Program-made: the position numbers and the translations under genes
The notes under the pieces: model-generated
What the model was told of the DNA's origin: nothing
Databases searched by the model: none
What the model saw: the letters and a program-made list of their open reading frames with translations, nothing else
Assembly: GCA_001466705.2 (NCBI GenBank)
Contig: LATX02000184.1
Coordinates: 1 to 64,000 of the forward strand
Direction: 5' to 3'
Origin: Moniliophthora roreri
Lineage: Eukaryota > Basidiomycota > Agaricomycetes > Agaricales > Marasmiaceae
DNA length: 64,000 bases
Part shown: positions 6,965 to 64,000 of the stretch, one piece after another
Layout: the number at the start of each line of letters is the position of its first letter
Position numbering within the stretch: the first letter of the stretch is position 1

Positions 6965-7726
6965 CATCAGTGAAATGGACACCTAAATATATTGGAATAA
7001 AATGAGTGAAATACATTATAATGGCCAAAATACATTATAATCATTATGGTGTATTTTAATGTAATATAATTGTTGTTCCTTTATTTTAATGGATTAAAAT
7101 GAAGCAAAATGGTTATAATGTATTCTGGCTATTATAATGTATTTTGGCTATTATGATGTATTTCAGCTATTATAATGCATCGGCCCTACCTGGGGGTCGG
7201 AGACAAAAAGAAATAATATTTATTTGTTGCAACCCCCATGAGTTGAACTCTTCACCACAAGGTTGATTAGTCAGCAACCTTGACAGCCGCCAGGCACTCA
7301 AGACCACTGTACCACACTGCCATATGCTTATCAGCACACATAGTGCAATATATCCCCTTACTCAAAAGACCTATCTTCACCCCCCTGCTGTTTCTATTGA
7401 TCAAATCCCCAACCAAAAGCTTCCCTTCACTTTATAGAGTCCTCTCCCTGTCCTCTGGAAGGCATAAAAATGCACTGTTTTGATTGCCTCTGTTACAATC
7501 TATTTTACTACATTATAATAACCCTGTCTCATTTTATTGCATTTTAATGTACTATAATAATACCATCCCATTTTATTATATTTTAATGGATTATAATAAC
7601 ACCAGTCTCATTTTAATGCATTTTAATGTATTGTAATAGCATTGCTTGATTTTAATTTATTATAATGGACTAAAATCAGCAAAATACATTATAATTTATT
7701 ATATTTAGGTGTCCATTTTGCTGATG
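6965..7726. mobile_element. MITE family A, copy 1 (762 bp)
   Basis: Terminal inverted repeats of the form CATCAGYRAAATGGACACC, continuing into CTAAATATA, are at 6965 and, inverted, at about 7699-7726. The interior is filled with TATAATGTATTTTGGCTAT and TTTTAATG-type repeats. Relative to the short copy at 10372 it carries about 408 extra bp (7091-7498), including a tRNA-like module. No transposase is encoded. The 3-bp flanks do not match here (TTG/TAG), unlike copy 3. Confidence 0.8.
7200..7321 (-). repeat. tRNA-like Pol III module (SINE-like) inside the MITE
   Basis: Read on the minus strand, an A-box-like TGGTACAGTGG (7304-7314) is followed by a stable hairpin with arms AAGGTTG/CAACCTT. A B-box-like AGTTCAACTCA (7239-7249) and a T run (about 7203-7208) follow. 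The order and spacing fit an internal Pol III promoter with terminator, as in tRNA-derived SINEs. The T arm is imperfect, so this is not called a functional tRNA. A second, more diverged version is at 8689-8810 in copy 2. Confidence 0.45.
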
Positions 7727-7728
7727 TA

Positions 7729-8451
7729 GCAGAGCCAGTCCTGATATAAGTTCGAACCCACTGTACGTGTNCCACTTGAATTTGAGGTGTGGAAGCAGCA
7801 GAGTTGGGAATCAATTGTCGCAAGGCGAACGGGAGCACTGCGGAAGCTGGAGAAAGACATGGCCCGTCGTGCAGAGATTTTCTCGGGCATTGATGAACCC
7901 CTACAAATTCATAGCTGGTTCTTGGGGAGACCATTTGATATGGCATCCGAGAAGATTCATCGAATCAATGCGGATATTAGCTTCTTCAAGGCTACACAAT
8001 GTTTCATGCCGGAGAAGGAGGCAGAGTTGCAGGAGACCCTCAAGCATTACAACTCGCTTGATTTCATCTAAGAAGTGTTCAAGGAAGGTTTATTCAATGG
8101 AGGCCAGGAGCGGGAAAAGGCTTTCGCGCTGTTGAGAGATAAATCTAGTTTTGATGCAGCGATTAAAGGCTGTCCCGCTCCGAGAAGTTGCTACAACTTA
8201 AACTAGATCGTCTTGTCTGTATATTGAACACATGAAAATTATACAATTTTAATCATATTGCAGTAGTGTAGGCTAATAGCAAAGTGTGCAAGGCCATGAT
8301 CAACGTGGTATCAACCAAGCGGAATGTGGTTGGCATGATGCTGAGTGTAGGTTATTACAGGTCTTGGGTTTGAATTCACCTCAGTTCAAATGGGCCGCCG
8401 GTGGCAGGCACACGTACAGTGGGTTCGAACTTATATCGGGACTGGCTCTGC
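7729..8451. repeat. Segment bounded by 42-bp inverted repeats, carrying a short open frame
   Basis: Inverted repeats at 7729-7770 and 8410-8451 match at 41 of 42 positions (GCAGAGCCAGTCC...). Between them lies a 94-codon frame (7787-8071). After one stop, coding-like sequence continues (EVFKEGLFNGGQEREKAFA). I do not recognise the protein, which may be a captured host gene fragment. Both repeats contain a GGTTCGAAC core, like a Pol III B box. The segment sits exactly between two direct MITE copies. An N at 7771 abuts the left repeat, so the arrangement should be treated with care. Confidence 0.5.
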
Positions 8452-8467
8452 TAAGGGTTCAGACTGT

Positions 8468-9249
8468 CATCCTAAATATATTGGAATAAAATGAGTGAAA
8501 TACATTATAATCATTATGGTGTATTTTAATGTAATATAATTGTTGTTCCTTTATTTTAATGGATTAAAATGAAGCAAAATGGTTATAATGTATTCTGGCT
8601 ATTATAATGTATTCTGGCTATTATAATGTATTTTGGCTATTATAATGTATTTCAGCTGTTATAATGCATCGGCCCTACCTGGGGGTCGGGGACAAAAAGA
8701 AATAATATTTACTTGTTGCAACCCCTATGAGTCAAACCCTCAACCACAAGGTTGATTAGTCAGCAACCTTGACAGCTGCTGGGCACTCAAGACCACTGTA
8801 CCACACTGCCATATGCTTATCAGCACACACAATATATCCCCTTACTCAAAAGACCTATCTTCACCCCCTTGCTGTTTCTATTGATCAAATCCCCAACCAA
8901 AAGCTTTCCTTCACTTTATAGAGTCCCCTCCCTGTCCTCTGGAAGGCATAAAAATGCACTGTTCTGATTGCCTCTGTTACAATCTATTTTACTACATTAT
9001 AATAACCCTGTCTCATTTTATTGCATTTTAATATACTATAACAATACCATCCCATTTTATTGCATTTTAATGTACTATAATAATACCATCCCATTTTATT
9101 ATATTTTAATGGATTATAATAACACCAGTCTCATTTTAATGCATTTTAATGTATTGTAATAGCATTGCTTGATTTTAATTTATTATAATGGACTAAAATC
9201 AGCAAAATACATTATAATTTATTATATTTAGGTGTCCATTTTGCTGATG
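8468..9249. mobile_element. MITE family A, copy 2, left end truncated
   Basis: Same family and orientation as the copy at 6965. The left terminal repeat lacks about its outer 17 bp and starts at CCTAAATATA (8471). The right end is complete at 9249. It carries the same tRNA-like module (A-box-like 8793-8803). The copy is flanked by a perfect 19-bp direct repeat (8452-8470 and 9250-9268), far longer than a normal target duplication for this family. Confidence 0.8.
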
Positions 9250-9268
9250 TAAGGGTTCAGACTGTCAT

Positions 9269-10156
9269 GCGGGGTTCGAAACGGCTATGTTCAAACTGCG
9301 AACCCTGCGGTTACTGAATGCTTGGATTTGAGTAAATAGTTGCTCAACTAAAGACTCCTCGGCATATCTGTTGATTCTGCCAACTGTACCAGAAAACTAA
9401 GGATGAGAGTATTGAGCAACTGGCGCAAGGTCGACCCACCGTTCGACGGTTGTACCTCTACTATCCAATCAACTGTTAGATTTGGTCAATGGGACTCGTC
9501 GCCAATAGTGAAAGATTTAAATCACCAGATGCTTCAATAACGATTTGTACCACCTCAACATCGAGTAAGTATCTTCTTCAGTTCCTCCGCTCCAGATATC
9601 TGGGTCCGCTGTTTCTCCTGGACCATCAGTTTCACCATTTGGATGGAATGGAAGGATCCCAAGTGGTCTACCCTACAATCCGAGTGAGATCAAGTGGAGC
9701 GATGAGGAACGAACTTCAAACTGTCCTACCAACTTAGCCCAGAGAGTCACGCTTTCCTGGCAATGTCACGCGAGTGTTACGTAGAGTAGCTTGCCGGCCG
9801 GTACTGCTGCGAGCGGCCTGGCGAGGAGTCATATAGCTGAGTATGGAAGCCACAAAGGGTTTGCTCAGGGCACACGGCATGGCCACTTGAAGAATAAGGG
9901 ACACAGCCTGCTCTGAAGCTACTGCCAATCGTGATTGCCGCACCGATCTTCATTGCATTCACAGGCGAGTCATTTCATCCCAGAAGCTTGAATGGATAAC
10001 AAGGGCGAAAATGGCCTGACTGGTAAGCACGCGCGTGTGTGCGTGTGGTCGTCGAGTCAGAGCGTATAGNACTATGTTGGTGAGTCAGAAGTTCATGACT
10101 GCAGCATCCCTATTATATGTCGTTAAGAGGAGTCTAAATAAGTGAGTCAGACAGAC
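9269..10156. other. Intergenic stretch between MITE copies
   Basis: CpG content is higher than in the adjacent elements, so this looks like single-copy host DNA. No domain or convincing spliced gene was found. Short frames at 9489-9737 and 9734-9943 are unsupported. An N lies at 10070. Confidence 0.3.
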
Positions 10157-10368
10157 TTACTGGTCATAATACAGTGCGACAGATTTTGCAATATGAAAGG
10201 CATAGAAACATGGGAACTCCTGGTCCATCATATGACAAACTGTGTCAAAATTCTCAGCCTGATCCAGGTACTCAATTAGAGCCTCTGGGTCTTTCACGAA
10301 CTCAACTGAACTGTCGATGATTGGTTGCAGGTACTGAAGAATTTCTTGTCCTCTCTGGATTGAGGGAA
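10157..10368 (-). pseudogene. Host gene fragment interrupted by MITE copy 3
   Basis: A minus-strand frame reads VPSIQRGQEILQYLQPII, then EYLDQAENFDTVCHMM, a coding-like pattern of Leu/Ile heptads and acidic residues. Upstream, the frame passes into the terminal repeat of the MITE inserted at 10372-10725. If the element and one CTT are removed, the flanking host sequence becomes continuous. A stop codon then lies just before this exon, so an intron border may be there instead. The family is not recognised. Confidence 0.35.
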
Positions 10369-10371
10369 CTT

Positions 10372-10725
10372 CATCAGCGAAATGGACACCTAAATATATT
10401 GGAATAAAATGAGTGAAATACATTATAATGGCCAAAATACATTATAATCATTATGGTGTATTTTAATGTAATATAATTGTTGTTCCTTTATTTTAATTCT
10501 ATTTTACTACATTATAATAACCCTGTCTCATTTTATTGCATTTTAATGTACTATAATAATACCATCCCATTTTATTATATTTTAATGGATTATAATAACA
10601 CCAGTCTCATTTTAATGCATTTTAATGTATTGTAATAGCATTGCTTGATTTTAATTTATTATAATGGACTAAAATCAGCAAAATACATTATAATTTATTA
10701 TATTTAGGTGTCCATTTTGCTGATG
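10372..10725. mobile_element. MITE family A, copy 3, short form (354 bp)
   Basis: Terminal inverted repeats CATCAGCRAAATGGACACC at both ends, flanked by CTT on each side (10369-10371 and 10726-10728), which gives a 3-bp target duplication. It lacks the 408-bp middle part found in copies 1 and 2, including the tRNA-like module. Either this is the ancestral form without the inserted module or a deletion derivative. No coding capacity. Confidence 0.8.
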
Positions 10726-10767
10726 CTTATACATCTATATTTGGCCTCATGTCATATATGAAGATTC

Positions 10768-11109
10768 ATGGTCAATACTACTGGTCTTCTGACAAGACAG
10801 GCCAATATAAGACTGCAGAATGCAGAGGATCAGTGGAAGATGCTCAGACTCCCAAAACTTACTCCATATGCATATGGATCAGACTTCAGTGCAAGTGACT
10901 CGACACTTGTGGTTGAGCAGCCAGCATTTATGACATCATTTACAACTGGAAAACTGCACAGGGTCTTGACCCTACTACAGCCAATTATTAGGGATACTTA
11001 CCCTAAGTTGGGCATCACCAGAGTGAAGAGAGAAAAGCAATTTAAGGAGCCTGCCAAAGATCAAAGCAGTGAAGATATGTTTCTCATTGTAGAACTTGAT
11101 TTCCTGTAG
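10768..11109 (+). CDS. Unrecognised open frame, possible relic exon
   Basis: An open frame of 113 codons directly beyond the MITE. It has a plausible coding texture (YGSDFSASDSTLVVEQPAF, RVKREKQFKEPAKDQSSED) but no recognised domain. It may belong to the interrupted locus on the other side of the MITE or to an old transposase. Low confidence that it is a working gene. Confidence 0.2.
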   Translation: MVNTTGLLTRQANIRLQNAEDQWKMLRLPKLTPYAYGSDFSASDSTLVVEQPAFMTSFTTGKLHRVLTLLQPIIRDTYPKLGITRVKREKQFKEPAKDQSSEDMFLIVELDFL

Positions 11110-12759
11110 CTTGACTGGTACTCTCAGAAAACAAGGGGTGAGTTATGGTGGAAATAGATATGGTCCGCTAGTACGAAGGAATCGGATCTTAGCACATGAA
11201 TAATCAACATATATTTGTGTGGGAGATTTCATAAGTGCTCCATTGGAGTATTTGTGATCCAAGTTCTCCGTTTGAGTCTTACAGTAATTAAAATAATCTC
11301 CGAGCTCATATTGTATGTGCGGCTGTATCTGTGTGAACGGAGTCTTTTGGTGAATATTGCTCATCGTCACCGACGACCTTGTCAGTGTCGGCGTCTAACA
11401 GGCGGTTCCGACGGAACATTTATTTGGCTTTGTGTGCAAAAAGAGTTCCGACGGAATGAATTTCCACCCTTGACAAGCAAGGTGATTACTATAGTTCGAG
11501 GTGAATATAAAAGGAGTGCGCAGAATCTTCAACGAAGCAAGAGCAGGAACTTGCGAGGCTGTTATCCCAGTAAGTTCGGGATTTAATTTCCAGTTCACTT
11601 GAACAAGCACAAGCGGCCCTGATATTAGATATTAGATTAACCTCGGCTTTAATTTGACCAGCCCTGTGATGCTCTTCCTCCGCTACCTCCATCATTGCCA
11701 ACTCGCTTATCCCAACCGTCTTTCCCCTCTGGCCTTAATATCTGGCCGGGTATCATGATGCAGTTCCGTGAGTAACATTTATGGTGTCTATAATTAATTA
11801 ATTATCCTAACGTTACAGCTGTACATACTAGAAAGATCAAAAAGCTGAAAAGTTCCTGCCCAGCCTGATACAACTTCATGGATTTGAGGTGCGTTATTCT
11901 AGTTTGTATTCGATGCTCATTACCGTAGTCGCGAAGAAGGACACTCATTCAAACTCAGCTGCACGGATGAAAGCGTTTGGACGGACAACTTTATTCCGAT
12001 TAGAATATACCCTTACGTACGATGGTTACACTTAATAGCAAATTTCACGGGCAGCGGTGCGGACACTTGTTTTCATCACTGAATGGAACCAACATTTTTC
12101 AAGACCATCGGGTATGTGAGAGGTTTGCAATCTGATCATCATATGAAGGGATGAACTATGTGTATCTAGGAGGTACCAAAACCTGATACCGTAACCACGT
12201 GTACCGTGACGCGTTGGGCTCGACTCGCGCGCAAAGCTACTTCTGTGATATCTGAGGGAGGTAAGTATGTTCGCCGTTCTTAGTCGCATTAAGCGTTAAC
12301 TGATCTTGATGACTTGAAGGACTGGATAATGCGACCAGGAGGGACTTTGTGGGCTGTTCTCAGACTCGTTATCTCTGGGCCCTGATGCCAATACACCCGT
12401 CATTGCATACAATCCCCAAGGAAATCTCGGCCTCAATTGTGAATATCGTCATATCCGTGTGTCGTGCCATGTGTCGCGTCGAAATTAAACACTGGCTGCG
12501 GGTCTCCAAGCGGGCCAGGTTAATGTTTCAATCCTGCTATTGTTTTCGACGATTTCAGCTCAACTAGATCTGGAGATTTTCCGTGCTACATACCGCCCTT
12601 AGCTCCATCAAAGGGATGACGCCCCTGTTCAGGAATGCACTCCTGATGGTTAGGGTACACCCCGGTTTTCAATTGAAAACTCTTAATCTCAACACCGATT
12701 CGGTTGTCTTCCTTTATAAATTCACGGGCTTTTTTCGTAGTACTTGAAACCCACCACCT
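11110..12759. other. Intergenic stretch with a short dispersed repeat
   Basis: No gene is supported. A short spliced-looking open sequence near 11760-12020 shows no known domain. A dispersed repeat at about 11362-11490 with the palindromic core TTCCGACGGAAC has an inverted partner near 55685-55816. Confidence 0.35.
11362..11490 (+). repeat. Dispersed repeat with TTCCGACGGAA palindromes (partner at 55.7 kb)
   Basis: Contains GTTCCGACGGAAC, then ATTTATTTGGCTTTGTGTGC, then a second TTCCGACGGAA. It is preceded by a CGTCACCGACGACCTTGT block and followed by GACAAGCAAGGTGA. The same blocks in the same order occur on the opposite strand at about 55685-55816. Confidence 0.7.
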
Positions 12760-16470: not shown

Positions 16471-16944
16471 CTATGCCGACGGTATAACCCCACCATTCGC
16501 CCGCGCTTGATACAGGAATTCATCCCATCCCTGTTGGCCTCCGTCGATCGTGGTGAACACCTGTACCGCAACAGAAATCGGGCTCCGCAGCACATCATAC
16601 CCTTTCTCATCATTTTCGACATCTGATCCGAGGTATACAACCTGAACAGTGCGATTATCCAACGTGTCCTCGTCTGCCACGATGAACAATGATGCGTTTG
16701 GTGCCATGTTCACGTCTAGGTCATTCTGCGCAATCCAACTGCGGTGCTTGTCGTTAAGGCTATCAAGTGATGCACCGATTTGGTCCTCGTCGGGAAATGG
16801 TGCTGGCTGGATGACATCCGGGAGGTTATAGGGTTGTGTGAATTGGCTATTAGGCTGATTGAGCTGGTCTACAAGGCTGGGGACTTCAGGCAAGAGCGCC
16901 CTGTGCGTGGTGTAGAGTAGTACAGAATCTCTGGTCGCAGTCAT
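16471..16944 (-). CDS. Small protein resembling DUF6924 domain
   Basis: A single-exon frame of 157 residues starting at the ATG at 16944. It has no signal peptide. A hydrophobic N-terminal strand (SVLLYTTH) is followed by an acidic middle and then FIVADEDTL, TVQVVYL, a VLRSP segment and WDEFLYQARANGGVI at the end. The strand-helix pattern with ADE-T and a C-terminal W-x-E-F resembles the DUF6924 family, whose function is unknown. That match is from memory and tentative. Its promoter and first 30 or so codons are duplicated downstream (17426-17968). Confidence 0.55.
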   Translation of the reverse strand: MTATRDSVLLYTTHRALLPEVPSLVDQLNQPNSQFTQPYNLPDVIQPAPFPDEDQIGASLDSLNDKHRSWIAQNDLDVNMAPNASLFIVADEDTLDNRTVQVVYLGSDVENDEKGYDVLRSPISVAVQVFTTIDGGQQGWDEFLYQARANGGVIPSA

Positions 16945-17968
16945 GGTGGTTGGTGCAAGAGATGGTTTCTGCCGTTATAGGCTCTCAGCTTGGGTGCGTC
17001 ATACTAATGTCACGCGCAAACTTCATCTGACTATATCACAAGCCTTGTTCTTTGTAGAAGGAACCATTTCAGCACTCTCGTGAAGCGAAGGCTGCAGCTG
17101 CACGGCCGTTGACTTCCACACTGATTGATTGCTCTCCGCAAAGCCCAATGCTTCCATTCTTTGCCCCGGGGTCTTCAAACACCGAACAAACATCAAAGAG
17201 ACTAACTCTAAAATCCGACCTCTTCGCGCTGATGCATACCCCGGAAAAGTTGTTATTCGCCTAGCTACAATCTTTTCCAATACGCCACAAACGCTTGTAT
17301 CTCTCAAGACGAGCGCTGGAGAGACCTCGTGAGGTCAGAGAAGTAGCATTTCACGTATACACCGCAACGTTCGACCTGATAGGTGAGATGTGAGCAGTGC
17401 AAGAAATGTCGCGCTGCTGGATCCAAATTGCCTATTAGGTTGACTGAGCTGGTCTACAAGGCTGGGGACTTCAGGCAAGAGCGCCCTGTGCGTGGTGTAG
17501 AGTAGTACAGAATTTTTGGTCGCAGGCATAGTGGTCGATGCAAGAGATGCTTTCTGCCGTTATAGGGTGCGTCATACTAACGTCACACGCAAACTTCATC
17601 TGACTATATCACAAGCCTTATTCTTTGTAGAAGGAATCATTTCGGCGCTCTCGTGAAACGAAGACTGCAGCTGCACGGCCGTTGACTTGCTCTCCACAAG
17701 GCCTAATGCTTCCATTCTTCGTCCCGGTGGTCTTCAAACACCGAACAAGAATCAAAGAGACTAACTCTAAAATCCGACCTCTTCATGCTGATGCATACCC
17801 GGAAAAGCTGTTATTCGCCTAGCTACGATCTTTTCCAATACGCCACAAACGCTTGTATCTCTCAAGACGAGCGCTGGAGAGACCTCGTGAGGTCAGAGAA
17901 GTAGTATTTCACGTATACACCGCAACGTTCGACCTGATAGGTGAAATGTTGCACTGCTGGATCCAAAG
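16841..17968. repeat. Tandem duplication of a gene 5' end and its promoter
   Basis: Copy A (16841-17425) and copy B (17426 to about 17968) are direct repeats offset by 585 bp, with scattered substitutions and a few small deletions. Each holds the first codons of the DUF6924-like gene (minus strand) and roughly 480 bp upstream of it. Both end with GCTGGATCCAAA, which fits unequal exchange or replication slippage. Confidence 0.85.
17426..17529 (-). pseudogene. Truncated duplicate of the DUF6924-like gene
   Basis: The frame starts at the ATG at 17529 and reproduces about 34 residues of the neighbouring gene (MPATKNSVLLYTTHRAL instead of MTATRDSVLLYTTHRAL). It then runs into unrelated sequence at the duplication border. 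The copied promoter may still be active, but no full product can be made. Confidence 0.8.
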
Positions 17969-47962: not shown

Positions 47963-48060
47963 TATTTGTATCGGAGTGCGACTGGATTGCATAGATTCTG
48001 TAGAACAGACATCCTACTATAGAGTATGCAAACAGACATTAAAGTCGCCAGTTCAACCCA

Positions 48061-49962
48061 CTACAACCGTTCGCTTACAGTAGCGCTCAACACGTCTCCT
48101 TTATAGAGGGGTACAAAGAAGTCCTTGTACTGCACCTCCGACCTAGCAGCAGTGTCAATAGGTCACTCGAGAAGGTGAAAGAGAGACGATGTACCGTAAA
48201 TCACTATCGCCGTGGAAGTCCAGCTTTCGGAAGATGTTCCCCAAAATTAAGTAGAGCTCACACCACGCAAGGCTGAGAGCGAGGTCTTTGAGTACGATGG
48301 GTAAAATCGATGAACGGAAAGACGTACTTGATACCAAGACAAGACCGAGGTCCCTTCCCGAATGAAACCAGGTATCGATCTAATGAGTGGTCCTTGTCTT
48401 CAAGCCATCGTTCAGGATTGAAGCGGGCTGGATCGGGGAAGATCTCTGGATTCATATGGACGAAAGGGTTTGCAATTGAGACGATCGTCTATAGAAGCAT
48501 TGGTTAGTCAAGATGTATGAGAATCTGAAATATGACACACGTACTCCGGGAGGAACTGGGTGCCCTGCGATAACAGCACCTCCCTCGGGAGCCACCCTGT
48601 TCATCGGGCTGACAACGCCAAACGACAAGCGAAGACTTTCTTTGATAACAGCGGTCTAAACACAGTTCAGCTCGACAGTCGTTCGCACAGATATGGCGTG
48701 CTCACCAAGTACGGTAATTTCTCCAATCGTTCCAACGGTAAATGGTTCCCTTGATCCGGCCACGCCGTCTCTAGCTCCTGTACAAGCTTGGCTCTGACCG
48801 CATTGTCCCGCACAAGACAGCGAGCACCAATCGTACAAGCGTTTCCAACAGTATCGCTACCAGCAACCTGCAGACTCGTTCCCTCTGTAATCAACCATTC
48901 TCTCGACACTCTGTTTGGGCGCCTTAGTTTGCCTTCGATTCGGGCGTTACTGAGAAGAGTGTAAAAGACATTGAGATTTGATTCTGAATCGGGATCGTAT
49001 TTCTGAGAATCTCGCATGGCGTATCGACCTGCTTCTCGATCTCCGCTTGTATCTCCAATCTCGCACTGGATGTAGGTAAGATACGCATAATCAACCAGGT
49101 AAGAAGTCGGATGGCAATGTTTTTCAGCAATGTCAGATGCTTGAAAACCCACGTAGCTGCAATGGAATCGTCGACGCCAAGAATCGCGGGATGATGGAAG
49201 GTAGGAAATGAGGTCGTGTCTGGATTCGTTCGAAGGGTGTAAAGAAAGATCACGTCGAGAGTGACACAGCGAAATGCGTGATTCATACTAGCCGGGATCG
49301 TCTTGTGGTTTTTCAACAGTTGCGAGATGAGTTTGTCGATCTACGTCGTTGACCATGATAAGTCTTGAAAAGGTGTGGTTGAGGTCCGAAAATGAGATAC
49401 TTACACGTTCCTGAATGACATTTTCGAGTTTAAGAACAGATTTTCTTGAGAAATAGGATGAGAACAGTGATTTAATCTCGGAGTGGTCTTTCGCATTGAC
49501 AACTGAGAAGACGCCGGGAGGAAGACCAATCTCAAACGCTCTACGGTAAAGGTCGGGATCTTTGGGCATTTTGTAAGGAGAGTTGTAAATGTCGGCATAA
49601 GCAGCGGGTTCGGTGAAGTGCAGCTAGACAAAATGTCGGAATTAGTACGGCTGCGAGACTCCAAATATGATGGTCGTACCTCGTTGCGGCCAACTCTGAC
49701 GACAGGGCCTGAAAGTGGGAGTAATGTGAGCAGCAACCGAGTACGCAGAGTTGATGAATGTGAACTGACCGTATCGTTCGTGGAGATTGTGAAGATGAGC
49801 TACCCAGCCCCCGCCGACTACAATGTCATAGTAAGCTCGATACAGCCATGTCCACCTGGCCAAGAGTGGCCCCGGATAGCTCTTCAGAGGATCCGGGCGG
49901 ACGAGCCTGACGAAGAGAGTAGCAGCGATAGCCAACGCAATGGCGATGAAAGCTTGATTCAT
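48061..49962 (-). pseudogene. Cytochrome P450, paralogue 3, one-base frameshift in exon 4
   Basis: Exons on minus: 49962-49770, 49708-49680, 49623-49405, 49340-48706, 48655-48545, 48488-48328, 48272-48195 and 48142-48061. The anchor (AFIAIALAIAATLFVRL), VAGSDTVGNACTIG, IKESLRL, PERW and FGKGPRSCLGI are all present. Exon 4 has 635 nt, one less than a multiple of three. Near 49018-49022 the order GATACGCCATGCG lacks a base relative to siblings (QVDxALRDS), so the frame changes before RDSQKYDP. Splice sites are intact. The closest relative is paralogue 4 (shared promoter block and exon text). Either a young pseudogene or an assembly error; restored length would be about 502 residues. Confidence 0.85.
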
Positions 49963-50000
49963 CGCTTCAATGAAGATGAAGTAGGAGACGTCGACAAAGG

Positions 50001-50010
50001 TATATATATT
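50001..50010 (-). promoter_or_regulatory. TATA box of P450-3
   Basis: TATATATA about 40 bp upstream of the start codon. The leader between box and ATG (GACGTCTC...CATCTTCAT) is shared with P450-4, so these two promoters derive from one ancestor. Confidence 0.55.
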
Positions 50011-52030: not shown

Positions 52031-52527
52031 AAATCACCCTGCTCATTGGACATCTCATAGATTATGCAGCAAATGAAATTATCGTTTAAACTGCGACTTG
52101 AGGATTGAATGGTATCACTGATGGAGTATTTAGACCTCGGCTATGTAGTGTCGCTTATATTATGGAAATGCTTTTTTTTATTATTTCTTTTAGTGTTAGG
52201 GAGAGACGTTGGGACAAGATTTTCCGAAGACGCTGCAATACTCGTCTGGCTGCATCTCTTCCAGACTGGCCATCAGAAAAGTGCGAATGAAAAATCTGCA
52301 GAGCTGGAATTGTGGGCTATCGCGTTCATACGTTCGAGTGATGAGAGGTGATATTTCTGGCTACTACTGTGAAACTAGCGGTTAAGTTACAGCAATGGAT
52401 CGTAGCGGTCATCTGGATTATCTATCTCAGCCATGGACCGACTCCCACTTTCGCCATTCCAGTTCGGTACCACATATATCGGACTCTAGGTCCTGCTGTA
52501 CGCCCATCTAACGCTAAGCTATAGCCT
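52031..52527. other. Spacer between GH43 relic and P450-4
   Basis: No feature recognised. Frames at 52105-52351 are AT-rich with no domain. Confidence 0.3.
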
Positions 52528-54439
52528 CTACAACCGCTCGCGGACAGTCGCGCTCAAAGCGTCTCTCTTATAGAGCGGTACAAACTGGTCCCTAAATTGT
52601 ACTTCCGACCTAGTAGCAATAGGAACACACAATCAGTGACCGTTCAAAACTCGCAGATGGAAGGCAAGACGTACCATAGATCACTGTCACTTTGAAAGTC
52701 AAGCCTTCGGAAGACATTCCCCAAAATCATGTACAGTTCGCTCCACGCGAGGCTGAAAGCGAGAATTATGAGCACGGCAGGTAAAGATGGCATACGAACG
52801 ACGTACTTGATCCCAAGGCAAGCCCGAGGGCCTTTCCCAAATGAAACTAGATAACGATCCAATGTATGGTCCTTGTCTTCAAGCCACCGTTCAGGGTAGA
52901 AGCGTGCTGGATCTGGGAAGATATCCGGGTTCATATGAACGAAGGGGTTTGCAATCGAAACGATTGTCTGGGGGAACTTTGTCAGTTGAATGCATGAGAT
53001 GGACGAACGAATACGCGTACTCCTGGCGGAACTGCGTGACCAGCGATGACAGCGCCTGCGTCGGGGACCACCCTGTTCATTGGGCTGACCACGCCAAATG
53101 ACAAGCGAAGGCTTTCTTTGATGACAGCGGTCTGGTACCGATCGGTTCAATGACTGCTTCCATGAGTACGTCATAGCACCCACCAAGTATGGCAACTTCT
53201 CCAAACGCTCCAAAGGCAGTGGGTTTCCTTTATCGGGCCACGCTGTCTCCAGCTCCTGCATAAGCTTGCCACGTACCGCATCATCTCGTACTAGACAACG
53301 TGTTCCAATAGTACATGCATTCCCAACAGTATCACTCCCGGCAATGCGAAGGGTAAACCCCTCTGCAATCAACCATTCCTTCGTCACCCTATTCGATTGC
53401 TTCAGTTTGCCTTCGATACGGGCGTTAGTGAGGAGGGTGTAAAACACATTGAGGTCAGGATCCGAGTCTGGGTCGTATTTGTGCGAATCCCGAAGGGCAA
53501 TATCGACCTGCTGCTCGATCTCCGCTAGCACCTCCAATGCCGATTCGGATGCCGGTGAGATGCGCACGGCTAACCATTTCGGTAACCTGGTGGCAATTTC
53601 TTTAAGGGTAGGAAAATGTTTGAAGATCCAGTTCGATGCAACAACGCCGTCGACGTCAAGGATGGCAGGGTGGTGGAAGGAAGGAAACGAGGTTGTGTCC
53701 GGATTTAATCGAAGAGTGTAGAGAGTGATAATGTCAAGAGTGACAGAGCGAAATGCGTGATTCATATTGGCCGGGCTCGTCTTGTGGTTCTTCAATAGCT
53801 GCGAGATGAGTTTGTCGACCTATATAAGCGGTGAGCACTGATAAGGCGTGCATGAAGTCAAGAAGGGATACTTACACGTTCTTGAACGACACTTTCAAGT
53901 CTGAGAATATATTTTCTTGAGAAGTACGAGGAGAACAGCGACTTCATTTCGGAGTGGTCTTTCGAATTGACAACAGAAAAGACGGCGGGAGGGAGACCAA
54001 TATCAAACGCGTTATGGTAGAGGTCGGGATCTTTAGGCATCTTGGAAGGAGAGTTGTAGATGTCAGCATAGGCAGCGGGCTCAGTGAAGTGCAGCTAGAT
54101 AGAAAGTGGTGTCAAAGTCAATGCGTTTGGGAGACGAATTTGGCAATGGTACCTCGTTGCGGCCAACTCTGACGACAGGCCCTGAAAAAGCGTTTTGTGA
54201 GCAAGTGTGTGCGTAGCATTGATTACGAGAACTTTCAGCTGACCGTATTGTTCATGGAGGTTATGAAGATGAGCTAGCCAGCCTCCGCCGACTACAATGT
54301 CATAATAGGCCCGGTACAGCCATGTCCACTTGGCCAATAGTGGGCCTGGATAGCGGTTTAGAGGGTCCGGACGAAGAAGCCTCACAATGAGAAGTGCGAC
54401 GACAGCAAGCAAAATGGCGATGAAAGCTTGAGAATCCAT
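52528..54439 (-). CDS. Cytochrome P450 monooxygenase, paralogue 4 (intact)
   Basis: Exons on minus: 54439-54244, 54181-54153, 54094-53876, 53819-53184, 53131-53021, 52967-52807, 52752-52675 and 52609-52528 (503 codons). An N-terminal anchor (FIAILLAVVALLIVRLL) precedes the hinge RYPGPLLAKWTW. The I-helix is IAGSDTVGNACTIG, with IKESLRLS for ExxR, FYPERWLE, and the haem loop FGKGPRACLGI continuing into NLAWSELY after the splice. No stop or frame slip was found. The long open frame across introns 4 and 5 is accidental. It shares a leader and TATA with P450-3. Electron donor would be the ER reductase; substrate unknown. Confidence 0.92.
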
Positions 54440-54482
54440 AGCTTTCGATGAAGATGGCGTAGAAGAGACGCCAACCAAGGCA

Positions 54483-54491
54483 TATATATAT
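54483..54491 (-). promoter_or_regulatory. TATA box of P450-4
   Basis: TATATATAT about 44 bp upstream of the start codon, same distance and context as in P450-3. Confidence 0.55.
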
Positions 54492-56824: not shown

Positions 56825-58743
56825 CTACTCACGTTCCCTCGCTGTAGCACTCAATACATCCCCTTTGTACATCGGCACAAAATACTCTCTAAACTGGACT
56901 TCAGACCTACATATTGTTTGGATGTTCGGTTAGGTTTGGACTGCTTGATTAGAAATAATAAAAAAGACGTACCATATATTGCTATCACTACGAAACTCCA
57001 GTTTCCGGAACACATTTCCGAAAATCATGTACAATTCGGACCATGCTAGGCTAAAAGCGAATGTACATCAGCATGGTGATGGTGAGAATTACAGTAGAAG
57101 CCTTACTTTATCCCAATGCAAGAGCGAGGTCCTTTTCCGAAAGTGACCAAGTATCGATCCAAAACATGGTCCTTGTCTTCCAACCATCGCTCCGGGTAGA
57201 AGCGTGCTGGATCAGGGAATATCTCCGGATTCATGTGTACAAAGTAGTTTCCAATCGAGACAATTGTCTGCAGTAGAGTTTATGTTAGACGAAATGAATA
57301 GCGGAAAAAACTATGGTACACGTACTCCTGGAGGAACTGGATGATTCGAGATGACGGCGCCCGAATCAGGAACAACTCTGGTCATCGGAGTGACTACACC
57401 GATAGACAGACGGAGGCTTTCCTTGATGACAGCAGTCTAAAAAGAACTGATCATTAATTCGCGCTTTGTAGAGATCCGTGAAACTGACCAAGTACAGTAA
57501 CTTCTCCAAACGTTCCAAAGGGATCGGATTCCCTTTGTCCGGCCACGCATTCTCTAGCTCTTGAACAAGCTTGATGCGTACTCTGTCTTCTTTGATCAGG
57601 TAACGCGTTCCAATAGTGCATGTGTTTCCAACAGTATCGCTCCCAGCAATCCGAAGATTGGCTCCCTCTGCAATCAGCCAGTCTCGCGTCACCCTGCTTG
57701 ACTGCTTCAATTTGCCCTCGATACGTGCATTCTTGGTGATAGTGTAGAACACGTTGGAATCGTCGTCGTCGTCATGGCCATTCATATTGGGTTCGTTCTC
57801 AGAGTCCCGTAAAGCCTTGTCAACCAACTGTTCGATCTGTGTATTCATTTCTACGTTTGCTTTCAGACCGGGGTCCATGCGTACCGCTGGCCAGCTTGGA
57901 AGATGGATAGCAATCTCTTTGAGGGCCGTGAAGTGCTTGAAGGGCCATGCAGATGCAATGACATTGGTGACACCAATGATTGCCGGGTGTTGAAACGATG
58001 GGAAAGACGTCGCGTCCAAACTCGTTCGAAGAGTGTATAGGGTGATAATATCAAGGGTGACAGAGCGGAACGCGTGATTCATGTTGGCCGCAGAAGTCCT
58101 ATGATTCTTCAAGAGCTGTGAGATGAGTTTGTCGATCTACAGTTAGTTGTCAGTAGGCCGCACAGGGGGTTGTAAAAAGTACACATACACGTTCTTGAAC
58201 AACATGTTCCAGCCTGAGGATGCCTTTTCGCGAAAAATAGGATGAGATGAGTGATTTGATTTCGGAATGGTCTTTGGGATTGACCGCTGTGAAACTATTG
58301 GGAGGCAGACCAAGTTGGAAAGCCTTTGAGTAAAGCGCAGGATCTTTGAGCATTTTGTAAGGAGAGTTGTAAATCTCAGTATAAGCAGCAGGGTCAGTGA
58401 AATGCAGCTAGTAGAGATTAAGATCGGTGAGAATGTCGCTGGGATGACACAAACGTACCTCATTGCGCCCAACTCTGACGACGGGACCTGAAAGAAGAGC
58501 TCAATGAGAGAGTAATGTATTTGATATAAGGGATGTAAACGTACCAAACTCCTCATGTAGGTTCTTGAGGTGAGAGAGCCAACCACCACCGACTACGACG
58601 TCATAGTAGGCTCGATACAACCACGTCCATCTGGCTAATGCTGGACCCGAAAACTGGTCCAAGGGATGTGGGCGAAGAATCCTCCTGAGGAAGAAACCAA
58701 CAATAAACAGAGTGAGGAGAGTATAGACTTCAAAGAGTTGCAT
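56825..58743 (-). CDS. Cytochrome P450 monooxygenase, paralogue 5 (intact)
   Basis: Exons on minus: 58743-58545, 58487-58459, 58407-58189, 58136-57489, 57436-57326, 57267-57107, 57050-56973 and 56906-56825 (508 codons). The anchor is VYTLLTLFIVGFFLRRIL. IAGSDTVGNTCTIG, IKESLRLSIGVV, FYPERWLE and FGKGPRSCIGI (Ile in place of the usual Leu after Cys) are all present. Exon 4 has an Asp-rich insert (GHDDDDDSNVF), four codons longer than in P450-4. No stop or frame slip seen. It is the parent-like sister of the decayed copy at 59.7 kb (same insert region). Confidence 0.92.
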
Positions 58744-59417
58744 GATTGTCGACAGAAGTGACGGTGAGGAGAGCTTCACGAAAAGTTAGCATTATGTACC
58801 TCTGTGAGATGGACTCAGACGTAAGTTCAAGACAGAAAGGATATGAATAATTGACCGGGAAAACGGGGCATTAGGAAGACAGCTGAGTGGAAAGTTATTA
58901 AGGTGGTCACAACTATATAGAGTTGTGCCAATGATAGAGCTCATGCCGAACACATTTCATTGGCAGAACAGACGGCTCTGCTCCGAAATTTCTCATAAAA
59001 TTACATGATGACATGAGTGCAGATTTCCCCCTTGAGACATGAAGTGAGCCCTAGGAGAAATCCATCATGCGCCAAGGCAAAACGTACTTGAAAGCCGTAA
59101 AATCATATTTAAGCCTATTAGGATCTCATCTTCCAGCAGTGATTTTCGGAATCCGATGCATTAGATTCGAGAAGCGGATACCCGGTGGCTCCTTATCGAA
59201 TGGTACCAGGGAGTGGGAAGCGGTGAATCCGATGGTAATGGTTGACATCAAAGAAGTATTAGTGCCGGCGGCGAGCCAACGGCGAGCAGCCGGGCCAACA
59301 ACCATCTGCAATGTCCGATCACGGCCAAGCTCCCCTAAAACAGATACCCCGATTCCGCTTTAACGATTCAAAAGAATATCTCAATCTTACTTTCATACCT
59401 TCAACTCCCAAATCTAC
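58744..59417. other. Spacer between P450-5 and the P450 relics
   Basis: No gene. A TATA-like ACTATATAG at about 58912-58920 lies some 170 bp upstream of P450-5. Confidence 0.35.
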
Positions 59418-59486
59418 CTCCACTCAGGCACTGGGTGACCAATGATGATGACAGCACCGGAATTTCCTTGATACCGGCTGTCTAAT
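59418..59486 (-). pseudogene. P450 exon-5 relic with internal deletion
   Basis: On the minus strand ACAGCCGGTATCAAGGAAA (T-A-x-I-K-E) runs directly into TCCGGTGCTGTCATC (S-G-A-V-I) and GGTCACCCAGTGCC (G-H-P-V-P). This is exon 5 of the family without its middle. It hints at a further, nearly erased P450 copy between paralogues 5 and 6. Confidence 0.4.
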
Positions 59487-59737
59487 ATTCGGGAACGAGT
59501 TCCATATAAGTAATCCTGAATAGGATGTGGTCCTTGTATGTTCTCCTTATCTCCAGCGTTCAGAGTGCTGACATTGCTTCGCCACAGGGCCTGCTTTCAT
59601 CATGCAAAACAGGAGATTTTTATCTTCCATTAGGCAACGACAAAGTCATCGTTCATATCGTGCACCCTGTGAATACTATGTATACCCCGAAATTCTATTG
59701 GCACTCGAGGTAAAGGCGCTCGCTCCACGTTGAACTA

Positions 59738-61615
59738 TTATTCACACTCCTTTGTTGTAGCACTCAATACATCCCCTTTGTACATTGGCACAAAGTACTC
59801 TCTCAGCTGAACTTCCGAACTATCGTTCGCATGTTTAGTCAGGTTTGGTCAGAAATATGGAAAAGACGTACCGTATATCGCTGTCACTATACAGGTCTAG
59901 TCTCCGGAACACATTTCCAAAAATCATATATAATTCAGACCATGCTGGACTGGAAATGAATATAGATCAGCATGATGAACAATGATGATTCTAGTAGCAG
60001 AATCCTTACTTTATCCCAATGCAAGAGCGAGGTCCTTTTCCGAAAGCAACCAAGTATCAATCCAAAGCATGGTCCTTATCCTCCAGCCATCATTCAGGGT
60101 AGAAGCAGGCTGGATCACAGAATATCTCTGGATTCATGTGCACAAAGAAGTTTCCGATTGAAACAATTGTCTGCATTAAAACATAAGGCAAAGTGTTTAA
60201 TGGGAAAAGGTGTGATACACGTACTCCTGGAGGAACTGGATAACCTGAGATAACAGCACCAGAGTTAGGAATGACTCTGGTCATCGGAGTTACTATGCCA
60301 AAGGACAAACAAAGGGTTTCCTTGATGACAGCAGTCTAAATGAATCAGTGATTCAGATCAAGAAATTCTGGCTAAGATTCAGAGGGCTGACCAAGTACGG
60401 TAACTTCTCTAGATGTTCCAAAGGGATTGGATTCCCCTTATCTGGCCATGCAGTCTCTAGTTCTTGTACAAGCTTGATGCATACTCTGTCTTCCCTGATA
60501 AGGTAACATGTTCCAATAGTGCATGTGTTTCTGACAGTATCACTTCCTGCAAGCCAAAGACCCACTCCCTCTGCAATGAGCCAGTCTCTTGTCACCCTAC
60601 TCGACTGCCTCAATTTGCCCTTGATATGTGCATTCCTGATAAGAGTGTAGAACATGTTCGAATCGTCATTGTCAAGGTCACCCATATTGGAACTGGTGTT
60701 GTTGTCTGAATCCTGTAGAGCCCTGTCAACCAATTCCTTGACCTGTGTGTTCATTTCTATCATTGCTTTCACTCCAGGATTCATGTGTACTGCTAGCCAA
60801 TATGGAAGTCTGAGAGCAATGTGTTTGAGACTTGTGAAGTGCTTGAAGACTCATACTCAGAAAAGAGATTTGTCAACACTGGTGACTGTAGGTGAAATGA
60901 AGGAAAAGATGTCACATTCAAATTTTTTTGAAGAGTGTATAAGGTGATAATATCAAGGGTGACAGAGTGAAATGCATGGCTCATATTAGCAGGAGGAGCT
61001 TTGTAATTCTTTACAAGTTGTGAGATAAATTTGATAATCTATAGGTGGGTTTCAGTGGGCTACTCACAGGGCTATTGTAAGAGGTATACATACATGTTCT
61101 TGAATAACATGCACCAGCCTGAGAACGTGCTTTCATGAGAAATAGGGCAAAACAAGTGATTTTATTTTGGAATGGTCTTTAGGATTGATTACTAGGAAAC
61201 TGTCAGGAGGTAGACCGAATTGGAAAGCTTTTGTGTAAAGCACAGGATCCTTGGGCATTTTGTAAGGAGAGTTGTAAATGTCAGCGTAAGCAGCCAGGTC
61301 AGTGAAGTGCAACTAAGAAAGAAGTTAGGTTTAGTGAGAACATGCTACTGAGCTGACACAAATGTACCTCATTGCATCCAACTCTGACAATGGGACCTGT
61401 TAGGTCTTCATAAGTGGTTATTGTATATCATACTTCTTGTGTAGGGTTGAGAGGTGAGAGAGCCAGCTGCCACTGACTACAATGTCATAATAGGCTTGGT
61501 ACAACCATGTCCATCTGGCTAATATGAGGCCCAAGGGATCCAGACAGAGAGTTCTCCAGACAATGAGACCAAAGATGGCTGGAGTGAGAAGAATATAAAC
61601 TTTGAAGAGTTGCAT
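59738..61615 (-). pseudogene. Cytochrome P450, paralogue 6, decayed by CpG-to-TpG changes
   Basis: Closely related to P450-5 in gene order and text: MQLFKVYILL, LARWTWLYQAYYDIV, AGSDTVRNTCTIG, IKETLCLSFG, FGKGPRSCIGI and SEVQLREYFVPMYKGDV. Exon 1 lost the PG hinge through a small deletion and its GT donor site. Exon 4 has a frame slip near HLQSPVLTNLF. Exon 6 carries two stop codons exactly where P450-5 has CGA (arginine) in ERW and LDRYL, each a C-to-T change at CpG. The start codon would be at 61615 and the stop at 59738. It cannot make an enzyme. Confidence 0.88.
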
Positions 61616-62947
61616 TGTTGTTGGCAGAAATGGTGGTGAGGGAGAGCTTTGCAAAAGAGCAGCATTATATATTTCTCTTAGACTTAAACATAAGCTAAAC
61701 ATGGTAAAATTGTGAAATTGAAACATACCAGACTGATAATAATCTCAGAACCCAAGGCCCTTAGTACTATGCAGATGAATAAAATTTGTGAATTGATAAT
61801 GAATTTGAGAAGACCTATAGTAACAAGTTACACAGAGCCATCCATATTGAAAGTCTTCAACATGAGAGTATCACAATGACACAATCAAGGACCACTTCCC
61901 AGAGGAATGAAGTGAGCCATCAGGGAGACTGCACTGATTGGAGAATACTATGCCAACTTGAAGAAATGAGCACTCTTGATGTCTAAAGAACTATATCCAT
62001 GCCTAGTGTGGACACATCTTATCTGGCAAGTGTCCCAGACTCCTAGACTTCATAAAGCACTTTTGGAATGATTGATTACTAATAAAATATTAAAAACCAG
62101 CTATTAACATAATCAAATTGTTGTCATCATACCTTTTATCCAGTCAATGCATTTATACTGTATGCTTTGAGGCTCATAAACAATTAAGATGACTATTGGA
62201 CCAATGAAAGATGCTGACACAAACTGTTTTACCATTGACACATGTCACAAGGGGAAGGGCATATGCTATTTTGTCATTGCCATGACATCTGTGCAGTTCC
62301 AGCCTTTCATGTTTTGTCGTTTACACATGTTGACTATCCATCCAGTATGGTAGAGACAGGCTTGACTTGCTAGGAATCTTTAATGTCCAAGTTTGAGACT
62401 GAACCTTGTTTTGTATAGGTGGGTGGGTGGGGTGGCCATCAGGAAATGACCATACTACTCTCTACTTCCATCACTTTCATGACTTTTCTGCAATATAGAC
62501 CATTGGCTGTATTGCACAGGAAGACTAATGGAGCATATTTGAGCAACTCACTTCCCAGGTCCAAAACTCTCTTTTCTACTTTTTACTTTCTGGGGCTCTT
62601 TGCCAAAAAATCATCAACTACTGTACCATTTTGATCATTCGAACAGGTGGTGTGACATGTGACCAAACAAATGAAAACTTTTCGCTGTCAGATTGGAAGC
62701 TGGACTGTGACATTAGGAAAATTTTGGCAGTTTTTAAGGTAGTTTCTAGTGTCCAATAACCCCAATTGGCTGTCAACTCACACAGTGACCTGTGACTGAC
62801 TGTGACATTTCATCAAATTTGAGGTCTCTGTAACCCATTAATTTGTCTAAGATAAGACTAATGGAAAACTACCCAAAAGATAACCTCCAAAAGTCTAACT
62901 CAGGTTGTTGTGCAAGTGTGGATTGACGTGATCAGAGTTACCACACT

Positions 62948-62988
62948 TAGAATGCCAACAAAACTCTTAGCTAGGTTGATTTTCTCTT
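62948..62988. repeat. 41-bp direct repeat, left copy
   Basis: Starts TAGAATGCCAACAAAACTC and is identical to 63960-64000, which follows the N at 63959 and ends at the window edge. It may be the second end of an LTR-like element or overlapping contig ends at the gap. Confidence 0.7.
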
Positions 62989-63959
62989 ATTGAAGCAATC
63001 TACTTCAAAGTGTTCACCTCCAGAGGAGTATATATGGGTTTTAAAAGAGTTTATATCCAAACACACAAACACACACACAAGAACACAGTGCACAAAGCAC
63101 AAAGCACAGGAGCTACAGTCCTACCAAAAGACTCAGTAGCCAATATAGTCTGACTCTATGGAGTTCAAGACTTCTTTAAGACAACTACAGTACACAGTGT
63201 ACTGAAAAAGGTCCTAGACCAGTTTCTACAAAGAGCTTAATTGCAGGCCCAATTCCTTTGTTAAGACTCTAAGTGTGTCACAACCTGATATCCAACACAG
63301 GCCACACACTAAAAGCCACCAGAACTTTTGGTATAAAGTTATCTCTTAGAAAAGTGCTATGAGGCACTCAAGATGTTATTTCTTGTCTCTTACAATGCAA
63401 GTTTGTTATCAGATTTCTATCTCTCTGGAGTCACTCAGGACCAATCTCCAGAGCCTGAAGTGAGGAAGCAAAACTGGAATGGCACACACAATTATACGCC
63501 AAACAAACTCGTCATGTATTCACAATTAGAGGAGGCATAGTTACTTGAGTATATATGAATATTTAGCTGTCCTTATATACTGTCTAAGGAATATTTCTAT
63601 AGGAAAATGTAAATAATGCCTGATAATTCAGGAAAATAATAAATGAGTGACTGAGATGCTAAAAGAGGGAATATTCAGATGTCACAGAGTCTGGCCATTA
63701 GGGTATCTGATCATATCCACACAGGTATCTGCTTTCCAGGTATTCTGGACTCTTAGATATTTGATTTTTCTCTTTTCTAGATGGGTCTGGATGGACAGAT
63801 GAGTCTATCTGTTCTGCATTCTCTTTTCCAGCATCCACACAGCCACTGATGTCCAGGTTTCAAAGCTTCTGAGGCTGGAACATACTGTTCCTGTTCCTGT
63901 CTCCTTTGATAATTCATTCTTGATCTTATCTAGAACTTCACATTTCTTAGATATCAATN

Positions 63960-64000
63960 TAGAATGCCAACAAAACTCTTAGCTAGGTTGATTTTCTCTT
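63960..64000. repeat. 41-bp direct repeat, right copy, cut by window edge
   Basis: Identical to 62948-62988. Its true length beyond the window is unknown. Confidence 0.7.

What the first reader, a model, noticed from the sequence alone, without database searches (positions are those of the whole stretch)
59700..64000. CpG-to-TpG mutation front inside the P450 array
P450-5 is CpG-rich (17 CpG in 57481-57780). Its sister P450-6 has 3 in 60361-60660, and the flank has 1 in 600 bp (61741-62340). Line-by-line comparison shows changes at CpG: CGATGG to TGATGG (stop), GATCGATAC to GATTGATAC (stop), GCGCCC to GCATCC, GACGACGG to GACAATGG. This is what cytosine methylation with deamination, or a RIP-like process, leaves behind. 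It suggests a methylated domain starting near 59.7 kb that has swallowed a host gene.
Basis: partly seen in the sequence, partly recalled or inferred. Interest (0 to 1): 0.75.

Follow-up and report, generated by a model that had tools for sequence, protein, structure and literature searches.

The report
CpG decay scar across P450 gene
In a cacao-infecting fungus, one of a row of duplicated enzyme genes sits beside a block of repeats and has lost nearly all its CG letter pairs, the scar expected if DNA methylation spread out of the repeats for a long time, and this has helped to kill the gene.

Summary
The window belongs to Moniliophthora roreri, a basidiomycete (contig-length match). P450-6 has a CpG-normal homologue on another contig (C116-B), which allows polarisation. 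Of 53 aligned CpG sites shared by P450-5 and C116-B, 47 are TG/CA/TA in P450-6 and 6 remain CG; in the control, 14 of 70 are TG/CA/TA in C116-B. The change favours CpG strongly, affects both strands equally, and shows no TCG preference and no CpA-dominated RIP signature. The switch is sharp, at 59,976-60,058, inside the 3' part of the gene and 2.4-2.5 kb from the nearest repeat found. The depleted domain runs on past the window to about 83.9 kb and is largely repeats beyond the gene. It includes about 0.7 kb with no other listed match. P450-6 is a pseudogene; three of five in-frame stops are CpG transitions. The genome encodes DNMT5-like and DNMT1-like enzymes. Best reading: CG methylation spread from repeats, then deamination. 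Methylation itself was not measured. This is a clear new example of a known kind of process.

The parts
59976..64000 (.). CpG-depleted domain (o/e 0.05-0.2 per kb); continues outside the window to about 83.9 kb of the contig
59976..60058 (.). the switch: of C116 CpG that are CG, TG, CA or TA here, 38 of 53 are kept to its left and 8 of 89 to its right
   Evidence: change-point on CpG fate against C116, log-likelihood gain 31; composition-only estimate 59,882-60,051
59739..61682 (-). P450-6, cytochrome P450 pseudogene, all but its last 0.24-0.32 kb inside the domain
   Evidence: self-comparison, in-frame stops and a 4-bp deletion, CpG effects
56826..58809 (-). P450-5, tandem paralogue with an open 508-residue model (last intron uncertain), CpG o/e 0.89
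   Evidence: best protein match 99% identical over 94% of the query, M. roreri MCA 2997
58920..59638 (.). intergenic stretch conserved (80%) with C116:63544-64295, outside the depleted domain; shows that P450-6 is in its ancestral place
61700..62433 (.). host flank upstream of P450-6 with no other listed match in the genome, 1 CpG in 734 bases; two short weak matches to the C116-B upstream flank
62434..62837 (.). older low-copy repeats (68-84% to ten other listed places), nearest repeat edge found
62838..64000 (.). interspersed repeat with about 40 other listed places, mostly 86-95% alike; class not established
   Evidence: capped list; 19 best copies have median CpG o/e 0.05
52525..54489 (-). 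P450-4, outgroup copy, CpG-normal
48058..50009 (-). P450-3, outgroup copy, CpG-normal

Best explanation
Repeats settled upstream of P450-6 and were silenced by CG methylation, kept up by the DNMT5-type and DNMT1-type enzymes that the genome encodes. The methylated state spread about 2.4-2.5 kb out of the repeat block, across host DNA and through P450-6, and stopped near the 3' end of that gene. Over a long time methylated cytosines deaminated to thymine on both strands, turning CpG into TpG and CpA. This placed three of the gene's stop codons and many arginine replacements; the gene also decayed by ordinary mutation. Shown: the CpG-specific, symmetric, one-sided mutation pattern, its sharp edge, the repeats behind it, the pseudogene, and the methyltransferase homologues. 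Inferred: the methylation, its direction of spread, and that decay followed silencing rather than preceded it.
For: 47 of 53 shared CpG are TG/CA/TA in P450-6 and the rest still CG, against 14 of 70 TG/CA/TA (and 5 otherwise changed) in C116-B and 17 of 71 in P450-5. TG and CA equal, 22 and 24. CpG transition rate about 8.8 times the non-CpG rate on the P450-6 branch and about 1.3 times on the C116-B branch. Sharp change-point inside conserved, collinear DNA. Flank without other listed copies equally depleted. The domain is largely repeats. In the 19 best other copies of the adjoining repeat, 38 of 38 flank segments within 300 bases and 34 of 38 at 1.2-1.5 kb have o/e below 0.4. DNMT5-like gene with MTase and SNF2 parts and a DNMT1-like gene. 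[quoted passage not shown] The derived residues are largely shared by strain MCA 2997: 50 of 58 comparable sites, so they are not sequencing errors.
Against: No 5mC data. Non-CpG C-to-T is also raised on the P450-6 branch (64 of 549 against 27 of 568); transversions rise by a similar factor (odds ratios 2.6 and 2.6), so relaxed constraint may explain it, but A/T transitions did not rise. Within P450-6, CpA transitions exceed CpC plus CpT (34 of 209 against 30 of 340, p 0.009), a hint of some non-CG component. In the repeat block TpA/ApT is 0.89-0.96 against 0.76 outside, which leans slightly towards a RIP-like or AT-rich make-up. The inward gradient of CpG loss is significant in one set of sites (p 0.007) and not in a larger one (p 0.18). 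By raw identity C116-B is closer to C116-A (85%) than to P450-6 (80%); the pairing with P450-6 rests on the tree (support 0.99) and on transversion distance seen from P450-6.
Confidence: 0.83

Rival explanations
1. Repeat-induced point mutation of the Neurospora kind struck the duplicated P450s and repeats in a sexual cycle.
For: P450-6 is a duplicated gene beside repeats and carries C-to-T changes on both strands. Non-CpG C-to-T is raised, with a mild CpA excess. TpA/ApT is 0.89-0.96 in the repeat block against 0.76 outside.
Against: Preference is CpG (56 of 145) over CpA (34 of 209). (CpA+TpG)/(ApC+GpT) is 1.52 in P450-6, 1.47 in its flank and 1.25-1.38 in the repeats, against 1.15 outside; RIP is known to lower it (recalled), and TpA/ApT is only 0.68-0.70 in P450-6 and its flank. 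C116-A and C116-B are not hit and P450-5 hardly. Depletion covers a flank with no listed second copy. M. roreri is described as asexual and haploid (PMC10468315, start of abstract and passages).
Confidence: 0.06
2. A basidiomycete RIP-like burst with CpG targets, as proposed for Microbotryum, mutated the repeats in few generations and leaked into the gene, without standing methylation.
For: CpG signatures are attributed to a RIP-like or MIP-like process in basidiomycetes (PMC4352252, PMC6980582, passages).
Against: The TpCpG preference reported for Microbotryum (PMC4352252, passages) is absent: 21 of 47 TCG against 35 of 98 other NCG, p 0.36. TG and CA are interleaved with no significant strand blocks (19 runs against 24 expected, p 0.09).
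Confidence: 0.16
3. The gene was already dead and merely drifted; low CpG reflects general AT-ward decay of a pseudogene.
For: 142 of 240 changed codons are replacements or stops, a 4-base deletion and at least one further stop are not CpG changes, and non-CpG changes are raised.
Against: CpG loss far exceeds other C/G loss and stops abruptly inside the gene; drift would not respect that edge or reach o/e 0.04-0.16.
Confidence: 0.04
4. Assembly artefact: P450-6 is a misplaced repeat-borne copy.
For: Single-N joins with duplicated flanks lie nearby, at 63959 and beyond.
Against: 10,071-63,958 contains no N, so array, edge and first repeats are in one gapless contig. C116 shows the same gene order.
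Confidence: 0.02

Closest known systems
CG methylation of transposon-rich regions in Basidiomycota with DNMT1-RFD and DNMT5 (PMC13297926, passages read)
   Same: CpG context, repeat-rich domain, both enzyme types encoded, CpG depletion expected from 5mC deamination
   Different: there methylation is measured; here only its presumed mutational scar is seen
Repression of genes near transposons in methylating fungi, Pleurotus ostreatus and Laccaria bicolor (PMC4905642, passages read)
   Same: host gene next to a repeat cluster; [quoted passage not shown]
   Different: that work shows lower expression; here the outcome is permanent mutation, over about 2.4 kb, and expression is unknown
CpG hypermutation in Tricholoma matsutake repeats with 702 TE-surrounded genes, 83.2% untranscribed (PMC6980582, passages read)
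   Same: agaricomycete, CpG-biased C-to-T in repeats, TE-surrounded genes
   Different: the authors call it repeat-induced point mutation of repeats, do not follow it into a host gene in the passages read, and leave the mechanism open
CpG bias in Microbotryum transposons (PMC4469406, PMC4352252, passages read)
   Same: CpG signature in a basidiomycete
   Different: TpCpG preference is reported there; none here
Neurospora RIP (recalled, and PMC4352252 passages)
   Same: C-to-T on both strands near repeats
   Different: CpA preference and mutation of both duplicates are absent here

Membership tests
5mC-deamination scar of a CG-methylated domain | transitions concentrated at CpG, both strands | tested here: met
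   56 of 145 CpG bases against 64 of 549 others; 22 TG, 24 CA
5mC-deamination scar of a CG-methylated domain | coincides with repeats, sharp edge to CpG-normal DNA | tested here: met
5mC-deamination scar of a CG-methylated domain | CG maintenance methyltransferase genes in the genome | tested here: met
   DNMT5-like, DNMT1-like; partial gene models only
5mC-deamination scar of a CG-methylated domain | cytosines in the domain are methylated | not testable with these tools
   no methylation data held
RIP, Neurospora type | CpA preference and RIP indices | tested here: not met
   CpG 56 of 145 against CpA 34 of 209; indices in P450-6 and flank not RIP-like, TpA/ApT in the repeats 0.89-0.96
RIP, Neurospora type | both members of a duplication are mutated, single-copy DNA spared apart from leakage | tested here: not met
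   C116-A and C116-B are not hit, P450-5 hardly; the flank without other listed copies is depleted
RIP, Neurospora type | RID-class methyltransferase | tested here: inconclusive
   five PF00145 places: DNMT5-like, DNMT1-like, DNMT2-like, two short ones unassigned
RIP-like process of Microbotryum | TpCpG preference | tested here: not met
   21 of 47 against 35 of 98, p 0.36
TE-mediated repression of neighbouring genes | lowered expression of the neighbour | not testable with these tools
   no RNA data held
cytochrome P450 (PF00067) | P450-5 is a member; P450-6 derives from one | tested here: met
   P450-5's listed database matches carry PF00067; DNA homology of P450-6 to it

The most novel reading that the evidence does not exclude
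The locus records a heritable CG-methylation front that advanced about 2.5 kb out of a repeat block into an ordinary gene and then stopped, with more CpG surviving in the outermost stretch. If so, graded CpG loss could date the advance. The matched, untouched gene pair on C116 would make it a ready test of how epigenetic spreading turns into permanent gene loss in a fungus described as asexual and haploid, where sexual-cycle RIP should not act.
Probability: 0.33. Interest if true: 0.6.

Novelty: new member of a known kind. Interest (0 to 1): 0.45.

Why it matters
In the papers seen here, silencing of genes next to transposons in methylating mushrooms is shown by expression. Here the same contact seems to have left a permanent mutational record, with a sharp edge inside one gene and an untouched homologous gene pair as control. 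It shows a simple route by which repeat neighbourhoods prune tandem gene families. It also warns annotators: a predicted protein that matches this decayed gene stands in public databases as a cytochrome (P0034). Three paper searches that named the genus (capped listings) and term searches of one M. roreri genome paper (no occurrence of methylation, CpG or repeat-induced) brought up no study of methylation or CpG decay in Moniliophthora. The one listed methylation paper that holds the genus name has it only in a table of sputum reads (PMC4699840, passages). This is no proof that none exists.

Tried and rejected
Second swallowed gene: a weak Nup188 match (E 0.0006, below cut-off) at 82.1-82.6 kb lies in a repeat with dozens of listed matches, so it was dropped. 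Repeat class: 20 of 47 open stretches of 75 or more codons from the two depleted domains (12 of 37 and 8 of 10) gave no transposon domain in Pfam, and an RVT_1 search (150 of 604 candidates scored) listed no match in this domain. Copies of the 79.3-81.8 kb repeat lie about 0.9 kb from an RVT_1 match at six places elsewhere, counted by hand, so part of the block is probably retroelement-derived. No TG start was seen at the copy boundary near 62,838, so it is not called an LTR.

Uniqueness of the flank: a first search suggested that all of 61.7-62.84 kb was single copy. A narrower query showed old low-copy repeats from 62,434, and the claim was cut to 61,700-62,433; a permissive alignment also found two short weak matches to the C116-B upstream flank. 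These searches skip very common words and score only the best candidates. The first flank table for the 19 repeat copies used a wrong flank length and was redone. A CpA component was considered: the excess within P450-6 (p 0.009) was not tested against the general rise over C116-B and is left open. A gradient of CpG loss inward from the edge holds in 53 shared sites (p 0.007) but not in 89 sites (p 0.18).
Full report
Where it is. The window is the first 64,000 bases of a 713,406-base contig (C86) of a 59.4-Mb genome in 154 contigs. Proteins from contigs of exactly 713,406 and 369,283 bases are named Moniliophthora roreri in a protein search. These are the lengths of C86 and C116, so the organism is taken to be M. 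roreri, a cacao pathogen.

The observation. CpG observed/expected per kilobase is 0.68-1.18 between 11 and 60 kb, 0.20 at 60-61 kb and 0.05-0.11 after that in the window. On the contig it stays at or below 0.40 until 84 kb and is then 0.71 or more until a further short depleted stretch at 91-94 kb; the change-point is 83,886, support 83,779-83,957. P450-1 to -5 have o/e 0.87-1.09 and P450-6 has 0.16.

Polarising the changes. A search with P450-5 found two close relatives on C116, a second two-gene unit. C116-A is 86% identical to P450-5. C116-B pairs with P450-6 in the tree (support 0.99), and P450-6 is nearest to it by transversion distance, though by raw identity C116-B is closer to C116-A (85% against 80%). 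The unit is collinear with C86 56.8-61.7 kb, including the intergenic stretch, and the 9.9 kb read there are CpG-normal (o/e 0.77-1.18 in 500-base steps). Of 56 CpG shared by P450-5 and C116-B, three fall in gaps of P450-6; of the other 53, 24 are CA, 22 TG, 1 TA and 6 CG. In the control, of 70 CpG shared by P450-5 and C116-A, 51 stay CG, 14 are TG/CA/TA and 5 other in C116-B; of 71 shared by C116-A and C116-B, 51 stay CG and 17 are TG/CA/TA in P450-5. Per base, P450-6 lost 56 of 145 CpG bases to transitions and 2 to transversions, against 64 and 19 of 549 non-CpG C/G bases. A simple multiple-hit correction puts the CpG rate at 8.8 times the non-CpG rate in P450-6 and 1.3 times in C116-B. A first pass with P450-4 as outgroup gave the same picture: 48 of 123 against 59 of 461.

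The edge. Of 200 C116 CpG mapped onto C86, 46 fall in gaps and 12 have other states; these were dropped. The remaining 142 give one change-point at 59,976, support 59,976-60,058. To the left 38 of 53 are kept; to the right 8 of 89. The edge lies inside homologous, collinear DNA, within the 3' part of P450-6, so no insertion or duplication junction explains it. Survivors lie towards the outer end: among the 53 sites above, 6 of 29 up to 60,664 and 0 of 24 beyond (Mann-Whitney p 0.007). Among the 89 sites it is 6 of 40 and 2 of 49 (p 0.18). A gradient is therefore suggested, not shown.

The gene. P450-5 can be modelled as an open gene of 508 residues on the minus strand; the last intron is uncertain, and codon counts after leave the last exon out. 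In its frame P450-6 has five in-frame stops in the dependable exons, three of them CpG transitions, a 4-base and a 12-base deletion, and a damaged first intron. Of the 47 CpG changes, 6 fall outside modelled coding sequence, 17 are silent, 21 replace a residue and 3 make stops; 16 of the last 24 hit arginine codons. A predicted protein of strain MCA 2997 (P0034) carries 50 of 58 comparable derived residues (2 ancestral, 6 other), agrees with P450-6 at 351 of 375 comparable codons, and ends where P450-6 has a stop. Most of the decay therefore seems to predate the split of these strains.

What surrounds it. Between the gene and the repeats, 61,700-62,433 has no other listed match in the genome and holds one CpG. 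Two short weak matches tie it to the C116-B upstream flank, as expected of host DNA. Low-copy repeats start at 62,434 and a repeat with about 40 other listed places at 62,838. All of 79-83.9 kb and most of 64.8-74 kb match elsewhere; 65.5-67.0 kb has no listed match, whose capped list also lacks the query's own place. The 74-78.8 kb stretch was not queried itself, but 76.8-78.3 kb matches the queried part. In the 19 best copies of the 62.8-kb repeat the median o/e is 0.05; 38 of 38 flank segments within 300 bases and 34 of 38 at 1.2-1.5 kb are below 0.4. Many of those flanks may be repeats too, so this is not an independent test of spreading.

Machinery. PF00145 matches lie at five places. One is DNMT5-like, matching chain 7r76 along the methyltransferase and SNF2 parts; the PDB table names it Rad8, and that it is the Cryptococcus DNMT5 structure is recalled. 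One is DNMT1-like, one DNMT2-like, hence probably an RNA enzyme. Two short ones are unassigned, one of them below Pfam's cut-off in its reading frame. Basidiomycetes use DNMT1-RFD and DNMT5 and methylate mainly CG in TE-rich regions (PMC13297926, passages).

Mechanism and rivals. CpG specificity, strand symmetry, RIP indices that do not fit in P450-6 and its flank, absence of TCG preference, little or no change in the paralogues and depletion of DNA without other listed copies together favour standing CG methylation with deamination over RIP. Results that do not fit neatly: non-CpG C-to-T and transversions are up (odds ratios 2.6) while A/T transitions are unchanged, CpA is mildly favoured among non-CpG sites, and TpA/ApT in the repeats is 0.89-0.96 against 0.76 outside. 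Methylation was not measured, and the time order of silencing and gene death is not known.

Verdict. It is a clean example of a process already known in kind; its value lies in the matched control and the sharp edge. After the recount I lowered confidence slightly (0.85 to 0.83), raised the RIP-like rival by 0.01 and lowered the novel case (0.4 to 0.33), because of the weaker gradient and the TpA/ApT values.

Noticed in passing
window 3409-11269: A second CpG-depleted domain with internal repeats (o/e 0.37 overall), with two CpG-dense islands at about 7.75-8.45 and 9.27-10.2 kb beside single-N joins.
   Followed up: partly
C86 91-94 kb (L011, end of stretch; outside the window): A further short CpG-depleted stretch (o/e 0.15-0.28) with repeats shared with the 76-84 kb block.
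   Followed up: no
window 63959; also contig positions 74809, 78147, 91927, 93942: Single-N assembly joins; around 63959 two pieces of 341 and 540 bp are repeated at 99.7-100%, around 78147 1.98 kb at 98.6%, suggesting scaffold joins with unresolved overlap.
   Followed up: partly
L048 (C116:60500-70400): A second, CpG-normal copy of the P450-5/P450-6 unit with conserved intergenic DNA: a segmental duplication or dispersed part of the P450 cluster.
   Followed up: yes
window 59980-61682: The decayed P450-6 is matched by a predicted database protein of strain MCA 2997 (P0034, 381 aa, named cytochrome), which looks like an over-annotated pseudogene.
   Followed up: yes
window 16841-17391 and 17426-17949: Tandem duplication of about 0.55 kb, 89% identical.
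   Followed up: no
L044 (C128, about 77 kb): A stretch matching an OTT_1508-like deaminase family (PF14441) lies next to the DNMT2-like gene.
   Followed up: no
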